A DNA stretch of 38,778 nt from a virus, in IMG/VR virus record IMGVR_UViG_3300022542_000649, positions 1 to 38,778 of that record; one strand, given 5' to 3'. The notes beneath the pieces were generated by a model. It saw nothing but the letters and a program-made list of their open reading frames with translations, was not told where the DNA came from and made no database searches. Positions within the stretch are counted from its first letter, which is position 1. Every line of letters begins with the position of its first letter. Shown one piece after another: positions 1 through 38,778 of this stretch. The translations under genes and the position numbers were made by a program.

Positions 1-141
1 GCCGCGGGAGCGGCTCTTATACCAATCGGGACCATCACTACTTCAGACTGTGCCACGGTGCTTGCGATGACATGGAGTCCTGAAGTTGCCGTGCTATCGA
101 AGACACCGTTTAGTACACCAGGACTTATCGATGCACTACCA
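1..141. repeat. Terminal direct repeat, left copy (circular contig)
   Basis: These 141 bases are identical to the last 141 bases of the window (38638-38778). The simplest reading is a circular or circularly permuted genome cut open by the assembler, because 141 is a common maximal k-mer length and the repeat lies inside one gene that becomes whole when the ends are joined. A true short terminal redundancy of the packaged DNA is less likely but not excluded. Unique genome length is 38,637 bp. Confidence 0.95.
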
Positions 142-25551: not shown

Positions 25552-27585
25552 ATGAAAAAACCAGTTGTTTTGTTTGTTCTACTCGTTGTTCTAGCCGTCT
25601 TAGCGATGCTCTTCGTGCTACGCGATATGGCATCTGCAAGCGGAGGTGAATCATCAAGCTATGACGTGATCGTTGTCGGTGCAGGAACTGGAGGGGTTGC
25701 TGCGGCGATCAGTGCAGCCAGAGAAGATGCTTCTGTTCTCCTGATCGAAGAGACGGATTGGGTCGGCGGTCAAGCCACAGCCGCGGGAGTTTCGACAATG
25801 GATGGGGGAAAAGATATACAGCAAAAGCAACCAGAGGGAATATACGCAGAGTTTATCGGGAAGATCGAAGCTCACTATCAATCGATTGGCAAAAGCATTC
25901 ATACCTGTTATTGGGGGGATGACGAAATCTGCTTCGAGCCACATATTGGACAAGCTATCATGCGTCAGATGCTTACCGAGGCGGGGGTCACTCTTCTGGA
26001 GCGGACGATAGTGACTGGTGTACTCTTTGACTCTGATGGAGCGATTTCTGGAGTCCAGACTGATCGAGGGGATTTCTACGCCCTTTCTCTTATCGAGGCG
26101 ACTGAGTATGGCGATGTATTGGAGTTGCTCCCTGATAGCTACATGATCGGTGAGCAGGTACAGGATGTAACATGGACTGCCATAGTGAAATACTATCCTG
26201 ATGGAGTCCCAGACGATTTGATCATCAAGACAGCCCCCCCAGGATATGAGCAAGATGTTGAGAAGTTCCGTTCGTATGTGACGGTCGATCCTGCTTTTTG
26301 GGATGTGCCTGTTGATCATTGGACCGCCGCATGGATTGAGCAATTGGCGAGAGACAAGATAACCATCGGTTGTGGAGACAAGATGTATTGTCCCGACTCT
26401 TATATCTTTCGAGCGCAGATGGCGATCTTCTTAGAGAGAATGCTGCATGGGAGTGACTATGCTCCCCCACCAGCGGTAGGGTTATTCGAGGATGTTCCCG
26501 ATAATTGGGTAGCAGATTGGGTTGAAGCGCTGTTTGCAGATGGGATAACATTGGGTTGCTCAATAGATCCGCCGAGGTACTGTCCAAACGCCAGAGTAAC
26601 CCGAGCGGAGATGGCTATCTTTCTTGGGCGGGCTATTCGAGGAACGTCTTATGTCCCACCAGCACCAATAGGAAGATTTGATGATGTCCCTATCGATTAT
26701 TGGGCGGCGGCGTGGATCGAACAGTTGGCAAGAGACGGTATAACTCTTGGTTGTAGTGCTACTAAGTTCTGCCCGACGAAGTTGGTGACGCGGGCGCAAA
26801 TGGCAGTCTTCCTAGAGCGAGCCATGCACTGGCCGGAACCATATAAACCTCCAGTAGCAACAGGCGGATATTCCGATTGGCCCGTCATTAAATATCCCGT
26901 TAGCTGGACGTTCCACAATGCCTACCGGGGCATTCCAGATAGTTCGACATCTGGTGATCTTATTACCAAAACCGGAATCAACTGGGCGAACGATTGGGCA
27001 ATAACGCCAAGTGCTATTTTGGATCGGGACGAGCGCCACGATCAGATGTGCCGAGCCAAGCTACACACGCTGAATTTCATTTATTACATGCAGACAGAGA
27101 TAGATTCAAGATGGGCAATTGCCAATGACGAAGGATATGATACGGAGTACAACCGCCAGAATCGTTGCCTACCTGACGAATACGAGGCGATCGAGATTCA
27201 CTTTCCATTGATCCCCTATGTCCGTGAAGCAAGGCGCATGATTGGTATTCATGTCCTGCTTGCAAGTGAGATCAGATATGTCTTGTTTGACGATGCTGTA
27301 GCCTGGGGCGACTATCCAATAGACTTTCACGGCGGGAGAGGATCTCTTGATTTCGGAGAGACCTGGGACATGGTTGATTATAGTGTCACCGGTATTTTCG
27401 ACATCCCAGCCGGATCCTTGATTTCGAGCTTATATCCCGGGCTATTTGCCACTGAGAAAAACATATCCGTCAGTCGATTAGTGAATGGAGCAACTCGACT
27501 CCAGCCAGTAACGATGTCAACTGGGGAGGCGGCTGGGAAATTGGCGGCTGCTTGGGCTGAATCCTTAGAAACAGGGGGATATTGA
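25552..27585 (+). CDS. Exported FAD-dependent oxidoreductase with three inserted SLH domains
   Basis: A 677-residue protein. Residues 4-23 are a signal peptide or anchor. YDVIVVGAGTGG (37-48) is the dinucleotide-binding GxGxxG, followed by SVLLIEETDWVGGQATAAG, the start of FAD_oxidored-type flavoproteins, and by ATEYGDVLEL near residue 183. Three SLH domains follow at about 247-300, 310-365 and 374-425, each ending in a TRAQMAIFLERA-like motif. The flavoprotein then resumes (about 440-677, with IDFHGG and the final VTMSTGEAAGKLAAA that closes the FAD site). SLH domains bind cell-wall polymers, so the enzyme should sit on the host surface. Substrate unknown. It is far from the virion genes and by far the largest gene of the rightward arm. 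Confidence 0.8.
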   Translation: MKKPVVLFVLLVVLAVLAMLFVLRDMASASGGESSSYDVIVVGAGTGGVAAAISAAREDASVLLIEETDWVGGQATAAGVSTMDGGKDIQQKQPEGIYAEFIGKIEAHYQSIGKSIHTCYWGDDEICFEPHIGQAIMRQMLTEAGVTLLERTIVTGVLFDSDGAISGVQTDRGDFYALSLIEATEYGDVLELLPDSYMIGEQVQDVTWTAIVKYYPDGVPDDLIIKTAPPGYEQDVEKFRSYVTVDPAFWDVPVDHWTAAWIEQLARDKITIGCGDKMYCPDSYIFRAQMAIFLERMLHGSDYAPPPAVGLFEDVPDNWVADWVEALFADGITLGCSIDPPRYCPNARVTRAEMAIFLGRAIRGTSYVPPAPIGRFDDVPIDYWAAAWIEQLARDGITLGCSATKFCPTKLVTRAQMAVFLERAMHWPEPYKPPVATGGYSDWPVIKYPVSWTFHNAYRGIPDSSTSGDLITKTGINWANDWAITPSAILDRDERHDQMCRAKLHTLNFIYYMQTEIDSRWAIANDEGYDTEYNRQNRCLPDEYEAIEIHFPLIPYVREARRMIGIHVLLASEIRYVLFDDAVAWGDYPIDFHGGRGSLDFGETWDMVDYSVTGIFDIPAGSLISSLYPGLFATEKNISVSRLVNGATRLQPVTMSTGEAAGKLAAAWAESLETGGY

Positions 27586-27610
27586 CATAGAAAATTCCAT
27601 CCATTATAAT
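27582..27610 (+). promoter_or_regulatory. Consensus sigma70-type promoter
   Basis: TTGACA (27582-27587), 17 bases, TATAAT (27605-27610): both boxes perfect and spacing ideal. The -35 overlaps the oxidoreductase stop codon. It would transcribe the small HTH gene at 27687 and run toward the GGYNN array. It is the strongest promoter match in the window. Confidence 0.75.
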
Positions 27611-27686
27611 AAGTAAAGACGGCCTGTGACTACCAGCACATACAGAGCACGCTAGATTATATGCTCCCCAATTGGTAGGCGTAAAT

Positions 27687-27923
27687 ATGACCAAAACCAT
27701 ATCGTTAGAGAACCTCAAGATCAAGCTAATAAAAAGGAATGAAGATGGCGAGACATGGCTTTCAATGGCCCGGGGATACGGTGTAAGCTCCGCTACGCTC
27801 TGGAGGATAGCACATGAGGGCTACGATCCTAGAAGAGCAGATATTAGGCAGAAGTTGAGTTTGCCAGAACTTATTGAGATACAAATCCGACGTGACAAGC
27901 TAGGCAGATTTGCCGCGGAATGA
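27687..27923 (+). CDS. Small HTH protein
   Basis: A 78-residue protein: TWLSMARGYGVSSATLWRIA (about 26-45) is a helix-turn-helix, followed by HEGYDPRRADIRQKLSLPEL, a tail often seen in small phage HTH proteins. ATG 27687 was taken as the start, with TTG 27672 as alternative; the ribosome site is poor. It is alone behind a perfect promoter and ends five bases before the pentamer array. Confidence 0.65.
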   Translation: MTKTISLENLKIKLIKRNEDGETWLSMARGYGVSSATLWRIAHEGYDPRRADIRQKLSLPELIEIQIRRDKLGRFAAE

Positions 27924-27927
27924 TCCT

Positions 27928-28140
27928 GGTTTGGCTAGGCGAGACAAGGCTTGGTGGGGCACGGTTGGGCCAGGCCGGGTGGGGCCGGGCATGGCGGGGC
28001 GAGGCTCGGCAAGGTTAGGTGCGGCCCGGCGTGGCAAGGCGAGGACGGAATTACATTCAAGGCGAGGCAAGGCACGGCATGGTGGGGTAAGGCGGGGTGG
28101 GGTAAGGCACGGCCGCGCGGGGCCTGGCTTGGCTTGGCAA
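27928..28140. repeat. GGYNN pentanucleotide array at the convergent junction
   Basis: Two blocks, 27928-28047 (24 units) and 28061-28140 (16 units), read as consecutive five-base units GG-pyrimidine-NN; 37 of 40 units fit. The last two bases vary freely (aa, ga, cg, gg, tt, ac, at, ta and others). A 13-base AT-rich break (28048-28060) separates the blocks and shifts the phase. The array fills the gap between the last rightward and last leftward gene. Five-base units cannot be a codon repeat, although they give long stop-free frames. Confidence 0.9.
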
Positions 28141-28212
28141 GGAAAAGGCCAACGGATAAAGGAGGAGGAAATCCACTGGCCTTTCCTTTCGCCGAGCGAC
28201 TGACTTGATTTA

Positions 28213-28506
28213 CTAAACTTTTCGCAATACTTTCTCTAGCAGCACGTTATAAATCAGGCTTGCAGAGCCTAGTACCGCCGCTGCATTTGCGATTAGCGCC
28301 CCTGCTAATTCCATCGGATCTTCGCTGACCACTTCAGGCAAACCGAAAAACGCAACGCCTAAGACAATCGAAATGACGAATAGCGCGATGTTGACTATAG
28401 CGCGCGACGGCTTGTACTCGAAATGACTGGCCAGTAACCGTAATGCTTGTGTAATTACAGACGCGACTACTCCGATATAGATAAGTTGTTCCGCTGTTAG
28501 CTCCAC
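28213..28506 (-). CDS. Holin-like membrane protein
   Basis: A 97-residue protein with three hydrophobic segments: about 8-24 (IYIGVVASVITQALRLL), 35-55 (AIVNIALFVISIVLGVAFFG) and 66-88 (ELAGALIANAAAVLGSASLI). Short length, membrane segments and a charged C-terminus (LEKVLRKV) fit a holin that opens the membrane for the endolysin. The start is GTG 28506 behind AGGAGGTGAATC. It is the last gene of the late operon. Confidence 0.6.
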   Translation of the reverse strand: MELTAEQLIYIGVVASVITQALRLLASHFEYKPSRAIVNIALFVISIVLGVAFFGLPEVVSEDPMELAGALIANAAAVLGSASLIYNVLLEKVLRKV

Positions 28507-38144: not shown

Positions 38145-38778
38145 TTAGAATCCTACTGTAATTGTTCTACAGAACGCTAATGCGAATGTGACTGTGGTAG
38201 CGGTATTCAAGCTGAGTTGCCACCTAAGATACCTTTTTACGGCCCTGGTCGCCGTGAGATCGACGACTCCTTTCTGAACAGAGGAACAATCCAATTCTCC
38301 GGTAGTGGCACCTGTGAGGGCGGCGAAATTTGGATTTGTATTAGTGGAAGCGTCTTCTATGGTTATCGTTGCAGTTCCATCCCCGGCGAATATTTGATAC
38401 ATCATATAGCCGCCGAGTGCTGTCGCTGCCCCATAGTCGTCGATGCCTACCGCTGTGTTTGCTGCCGTCCTCGCTGCCTTAGCATGGATCAGAACTCCCC
38501 ACGGTTTACTACGAGAATGAGAGAGAAGATCGGAAACATCCCACTCACCAAAGGGGATATTAGCAAATATTGCGCCTCCCTCTTCTACAGCATGATAACC
38601 AAGCTGCACAAACTCACCCATAAACACCGGATCACCTGCCGCGGGAGCGGCTCTTATACCAATCGGGACCATCACTACTTCAGACTGTGCCACGGTGCTT
38701 GCGATGACATGGAGTCCTGAAGTTGCCGTGCTATCGAAGACACCGTTTAGTACACCAGGACTTATCGATGCACTACCA
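38145..38778 (-). CDS. Tail-tube-like protein, C-terminal part (gene spans contig junction)
   Basis: The continuation of the gene that starts at 296: reading from the right end of the window leftward to TAA 38145. The joined product is 262 residues, larger than its paralogue by about 94 residues, mostly at the C-terminal side (LTGATTGELDCSSVQKG, RAVKRYLRWQLSLN). The part 38638-38778 duplicates 1-141. Confidence 0.7.
   Translation of the reverse strand, partial: GSASISPGVLNGVFDSTATSGLHVIASTVAQSEVVMVPIGIRAAPAAGDPVFMGEFVQLGYHAVEEGGAIFANIPFGEWDVSDLLSHSRSKPWGVLIHAKAARTAANTAVGIDDYGAATALGGYMMYQIFAGDGTATITIEDASTNTNPNFAALTGATTGELDCSSVQKGVVDLTATRAVKRYLRWQLSLNTATTVTFALAFCRTITVGF
38638..38778. repeat. 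Terminal direct repeat, right copy
   Basis: Exact repeat of positions 1-141. Merging the two copies restores an uninterrupted reading frame for the tail-tube-like gene, which supports a circular genome map. Confidence 0.95.

What the first reader, a model, noticed from the sequence alone, without database searches (positions are those of the whole stretch)
27928..28140. GGYNN pentamer array filling the only convergent junction
Seen: 40 consecutive five-base units, 37 with GG-pyrimidine, the other two positions free, in two phased blocks with a 13-base AT-rich break. It lies exactly where rightward and leftward transcription meet. The fixed core with free positions is not a simple slippage repeat, since unit sequences differ. 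The leftward strand is C-rich and G-poor within units, as Rho-type termination sites are; the rightward RNA is G-rich. Possible roles: bidirectional termination, packaging or recombination signal, or a binding array for a modular protein.
Basis: partly seen in the sequence, partly recalled or inferred. Interest (0 to 1): 0.82.

Follow-up and report, generated by a model that had tools for sequence, protein, structure and literature searches.

The report
Orphan phage guide-RNA array (VIPR type)
The odd five-letter array in this phage has the form of a guide RNA of VIPR, a CRISPR-like system first reported in 2026 with which phages fight other phages, but here the phage's whole genome shows no gene for the protein that normally reads the guide.

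Summary
Window 27928-28140 holds 40 in-phase five-base units, 37 of them GGY, in blocks of 24 and 16 with a 13-base break, at the one + to - convergent junction. Chance gives runs of at most 4 units; here the longest perfect run is 19.

The array is not a terminator, a packaging site or a simple repeat. Degenerate GGYNN arrays occur in at least 105 other viral contigs, always on one strand per locus. In 88 of 111 loci one gene family (PHROG phrog_4652) lies beside the array. That family is Vipr, the RAMP/Cas7-like protein of VIPR systems (bioRxiv 2026, PMC13142463; PDB 36pp). There, GGY/NN 'vrRNAs' guide Vipr to DNA by a gapped code.

So the window array is most likely a vrRNA. Two things are unusual. 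The window has a 141-bp terminal repeat, so it is probably a complete circular genome, yet HMM, HHalign and motif searches find no vipr. And the array has its own unit: a consensus promoter, an 83-codon HTH ORF, the array and a 3' hairpin.

I call it an orphan vrRNA array, perhaps read by another element's Vipr. No target was found. The kind is known; this variant may be new.

The parts
27582..27610 (+). perfect sigma-70-type promoter, TTGACA-17-TATAAT, in front of the HTH ORF and the array
   Evidence: 12 of 12 consensus match; activity not tested
27687..27923 (+). small HTH protein gene (ATG at 27687; longest ORF from TTG at 27672, 83 aa); possible accessory (Vap-like) DNA-binding protein or unrelated regulator
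   Evidence: Pfam CENP-B_N HTH E 2e-4, just under the curated cut-off; no PHROG and no relative in IMG/VR; not a detectable phrog_5926/Vap1 relative
27928..28047 (+). GGYNN array block 1, 24 units (22 GGY); unit 4 (GACAA) and unit 24 (GGACG) deviate
28048..28060 (+). 13-base AT-rich break that shifts the phase; no RNA fold of its own
28061..28140 (+). GGYNN array block 2, 16 units (15 GGY; unit 12 is CGCGG)
28136..28193 (+). 3' hairpin closing the array (GGCAAGGAAAAGGCCA ... TGGCCTTTCCTTTCGCC), the likely vrRNA tail and/or transcription end
   Evidence: RNA fold -24.3 kcal/mol, z -3.1 against dinucleotide shuffles; not scored as an intrinsic terminator
28213..28506 (-). convergent neighbour gene, 97 aa, hydrophobic, holin-like by eye only
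   Evidence: ORF; no PHROG or Pfam hit
1..141 (.). exact direct repeat of 38638-38778: the record closes into a circle of 38,637 bp

Best explanation
The array is the DNA for a VIPR-type guide RNA (vrRNA), carried without a vipr gene. Inferred mechanism: the + strand is transcribed from the promoter at 27582-27610 through the HTH ORF and the two GGYNN blocks to the 3' hairpin. Copies of a Vipr protein, a single-RRM RAMP, bind the GGY triplets at five-nucleotide pitch. The free NN pairs, read with one skipped base, pair with double-stranded DNA of a competing element and silence its transcription. The code and the silencing are shown for phage SUSP1 in PMC13142463; for this window they are inferred from form alone. 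Because this apparently complete genome has no recognisable vipr, the Vipr must come in trans (host, prophage or co-infecting phage), or be too divergent to recognise, or have been lost.
For: Array form matches the published vrRNA consensus of GGY alternating with hypervariable NN (paper). Of 111 loci with degenerate arrays, 88 carry a phrog_4652 gene, 87 on the array strand, median distance 27 bp; searching whole records added L045 and L068 plus fragments in L048 and L066. phrog_4652 is Vipr: the profile hits PDB 36pp 'SUSP1 Vipr protein' at E 1.3e-36 and Trine gp41 alone at 6e-34. AlphaFold2 model pLDDT 97.6, best PDB matches Csm3/Cas7-type RAMPs. The second gene of the VIPR pair (phrog_5926) follows in many loci. 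No locus mixes strands. Window genome closes by a 141-bp terminal repeat.
Against: No vipr in the window by HMM, six-frame profile search, HHalign (best probability 3.4%, against 98% or more for held-out divergent Viprs) or G-loop motif. No target found in IMG/VR or in 150 Chloroflexota genomes. Blocks of 24 and 16 units differ from the 9-16 reported for type II, and three units deviate, which could mean decay. Expression is not shown. VIPR rests on one 2026 preprint.
Confidence: 0.85

Rival explanations
1. A complete VIPR system whose Vipr protein is too divergent for sequence search and lies elsewhere in the 38.6-kb genome.
For: Several viral contigs over 30 kb with arrays also lack a detectable Vipr (G001, G002, G003, G010, G014, G017, G019), which could point to an undetected Vipr type; the preprint describes seven types.
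Against: Held-out divergent Viprs are found by HHalign at 98% probability or more while the best window ORF scores 3.4%; G-loop patterns that catch 96-98% of Viprs find no fitting ORF; no Pfam hit for the unknown ORFs.
Confidence: 0.15
2. A decaying remnant of a former VIPR locus without present function.
For: No vipr gene; one non-GGY unit inside each block and a GGA unit at the end of block 1; phase break between blocks.
Against: 37 of 40 units are intact with 19 in a row, a 12/12 promoter and a stable 3' hairpin remain; neutral decay would hit GGY as often as NN.
Confidence: 0.2
3. A bidirectional (Rho-type or hairpin) terminator or other DNA signal at the convergent junction.
For: Position between convergent genes; C-rich leftward strand; hairpin at the + end.
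Against: Arrays in other phages lie in co-directional operons and are tied to vipr; no terminator-like site scored here; fixed five-base phase is not needed for Rho.
Confidence: 0.05
4. A decoy or self-protective RNA that soaks up the Vipr of a competing phage (an RNA anti-VIPR).
For: Array without its own vipr; by analogy, solitary CRISPR repeats act as RNA anti-CRISPRs (own knowledge).
Against: Nothing specific; an orphan guide predicts the same anatomy.
Confidence: 0.15

Closest known systems
VIPR vrRNA arrays (PMC13142463; Escherichia phage SUSP1, Pseudomonas fulva prophage)
   Same: Tandem five-base units, fixed GGY and free NN, single strand, 3' structured tail, in a phage genome
   Different: No vipr gene in the genome; blocks of 24 and 16 units rather than 9-16; coupled to a small HTH ORF that is not a detectable Vap1; no tail sequence in common was established
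Vipr-bearing isolates found here: Gordonia phages Trine and UmaThurman, Mycobacterium phage LittleE, Escherichia phage wV8, Pseudomonas phage LESphi2
   Same: Arrays of the same form
   Different: All have phrog_4652 next to the array and most have phrog_5926
Orphan CRISPR arrays and phage solitary CRISPR repeats (own knowledge)
   Same: Guide-like repeats without the effector gene
   Different: Contiguous spacers and 25-40-bp repeats; no GGY/NN code

Membership tests
VIPR system | vrRNA with alternating GGY and hypervariable NN | tested here: met
   37 of 40 units, 15 of 16 NN pairs used
VIPR system | vipr gene (RAMP, phrog_4652) in the locus or genome | tested here: not met
   HMM, six-frame, HHalign and motif searches negative; genome closes into a circle
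VIPR system | vap accessory gene | tested here: inconclusive
   An HTH ORF lies 4 bp upstream of the array but is not a phrog_5926 member; other Vap types were not available as profiles
VIPR system | 3' structured tail on the vrRNA | tested here: inconclusive
   Strong hairpin after block 2, z -3.1; no conserved tail could be compared because no relatives were found
VIPR system | guide matches a competing element under the one-base-skip rule | tested here: inconclusive
   No match in IMG/VR; four 9-unit matches do not extend beyond chance; none in 150 Chloroflexota genomes
VIPR system | RNA expressed and bound by Vipr | not testable with these tools
   needs small-RNA sequencing and pull-down
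Rho-dependent or intrinsic terminator | terminator signature and constant place at gene ends | tested here: not met
   No terminator-like site; homologous arrays inside operons

The most novel reading that the evidence does not exclude
Vipr-less phages carry stand-alone vrRNA genes that load foreign Vipr proteins (of hosts, prophages or co-infecting phages) and so redirect or block another element's VIPR system: trans-acting or decoy guides in inter-phage conflict.
Probability: 0.3. Interest if true: 0.8.

Novelty: new variant of a known kind. Interest (0 to 1): 0.62.

Why it matters
VIPR is a months-old discovery proposed as the root of CRISPR. A phage that keeps a clean guide array but no Vipr would suggest that guides and effectors are separable in nature, as with orphan CRISPR arrays, and would make trans-acting or decoy guides testable. 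The survey also gives a simple DNA pattern (12 or more in-phase GGYNN units with diverse NN) that finds VIPR loci without protein search.

Tried and rejected
Coding repeat: rejected, a five-base unit cycles all frames, stops occur in several frames, and NN are near random. Simple microsatellite: of 120 genome-contig hits to 18 exact units nearly all were microsatellite-like, and only five carried degenerate arrays like this one. RusA or recombination hotspot: considered because a RusA-like gene follows two arrays (L117, L037, read by eye), dropped because phrog_4652, not RusA, is the common neighbour. Rfam: only a sub-threshold spurious hit. Relatives of the window phage by HTH or tail protein in IMG/VR: none. 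Peptide-style target search: no match. Vipr in 150 genomes of the presumed host family: none. Common 3' hairpin after all arrays: only weakly enriched, 22% against 14% of controls. Literature searches for the motif itself found nothing; the preprint came up only after the PDB name Vipr.

Full report
Observation. The array is as described: 24 + 16 five-base units at 27928-28047 and 28061-28140, 37 of 40 with GGY, separated by GAATTACATTCAA. Its longest perfect run is 19 units; simulations and shuffles give at most 4. It sits where + strand genes (to 27923) meet - strand genes (from 28213 on). The record begins and ends with the same 141 bp, and the head and tail genes continue across that junction, so it is most likely a complete circularised siphophage genome of 38,637 bp, although IMG/VR classes it as linear.

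Wider survey. A scan of IMG/VR for 12 exact GGYNN units stopped at 120 contigs. After dropping simple repeats, 111 loci (105 viral contigs, five genome contigs and the window) have degenerate arrays with near-random NN, and no locus has arrays on both strands. In bacterial and archaeal genomes the same pattern mostly finds microsatellites; degenerate arrays appeared in five contigs only, including one of Alicyclobacillus sendaiensis.

The neighbouring gene. Reading four loci showed a shared gene beside the arrays. Iterated profile search found it in 88 of 111 loci, on the array strand in 87, median distance 27 bp; 68 of the 88 lie within 200 bp, against 9% of control ORFs. It is PHROG phrog_4652, unknown function, present in cultured phages: Gordonia phages Trine and UmaThurman, Mycobacterium phage LittleE, Felixounavirus wV8, Pseudomonas phage LESphi2 and others, several of them with arrays beside it. 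A second family, phrog_5926, usually follows it in these phages.

Identification. The phrog_4652 profile matches PDB entry 36pp, 'SUSP1 Vipr protein', at E 1.3e-36 (single protein 6e-34). An AlphaFold2 model of Trine gp41 (pLDDT 97.6) matches Csm3/Cas7-type RAMPs. The preprint PMC13142463 describes VIPR: a phage-encoded ancestral RAMP with vrRNAs of alternating GGY/NN, which recognise double-stranded DNA with the NN pairs and one skipped base and repress competing phages and satellites. The arrays found here are therefore vrRNA genes. The link between array and gene family was reached from the DNA pattern before the preprint was found.

What is odd in the window. No vipr was found: profile HMM best E 0.14, on a + strand frame lying over the - strand tail gene, no candidate in a six-frame search, HHalign at most 3.4% probability while held-out divergent Viprs score 98% or more, and no ORF with a fitting glycine loop. 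The array instead follows an HTH ORF of about 79-83 codons by 4 bp, behind a perfect -35/-10 promoter at 27582-27610, and ends in a stable hairpin at 28136-28193. Some other long viral contigs with arrays lack a detectable Vipr, but none of ten tested had a long terminal repeat, so the window is the best case for a true orphan.

Host and target. The SLH part of the cargo protein at 25552-27585 is 52-57% identical to proteins of one Chloroflexota genome, a hint at the host. None of 150 genomes of that genome's family has a detectable Vipr, though no positive control was known in that set. The decoded guides gave no credible target: exact scans of IMG/VR were empty or gave four 9-unit matches that do not extend beyond chance, and 150 Chloroflexota genomes gave nothing at up to 3 mismatches.

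Reading. Shown: the array, its form, the family link in other phages, the promoter-like and hairpin elements, and the lack of a recognisable vipr in an apparently complete genome. Inferred: transcription, binding by Vipr and DNA targeting. I hold the vrRNA identity at about 0.85, and trans-use of a foreign Vipr or a decoy role as open.

Noticed in passing
window 1-141 and 38638-38778: Exact 141-bp direct terminal repeat, so the record is probably a circular assembly (overlap of assembler k-mer length) although listed as linear.
   Followed up: yes
window 25552-27585: Phage-carried FAD-dependent oxidoreductase with an S-layer homology domain and a signal-like N-terminus; the SLH part is 52-57% identical to several proteins of a Chloroflexota genome, a hint at the host.
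   Followed up: partly
L251 4750-4807 and 6143-6200 (Escherichia phage wV8): GenBank's DR_4 direct repeats lie beside or partly within the GGYNN arrays around genes 95 and 94; they may be parts of vrRNA genes.
   Followed up: partly
L250 5130-5510 (Mycobacterium phage LittleE): Array blocks are separated by hairpins that look by eye like tRNA T-arms (GATGGTTCGAGTCCATC), possibly processing signals.
   Followed up: no
L117 2900-4600 and L037 7600-9200: About ten array blocks in one intergenic region; in L117 they are interspersed with near-identical hairpins (GGTCAAGGTAAGGCGAG...TTTACCTCGACC). Large multi-guide VIPR arrays followed by a RusA-like gene.
   Followed up: no
L030, L036, L039, L108: Short arrays of 12-17 units without detectable vipr lie next to recombination-type genes (RecT-like, nuclease-like, Sak4-like), judged by eye.
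   Followed up: partly
L249 6591-7394 (Gordonia phage Trine gene 40): The annotated start appears too early: the N-terminal part overlaps the array and the PHROG match begins at residue 111.
   Followed up: no
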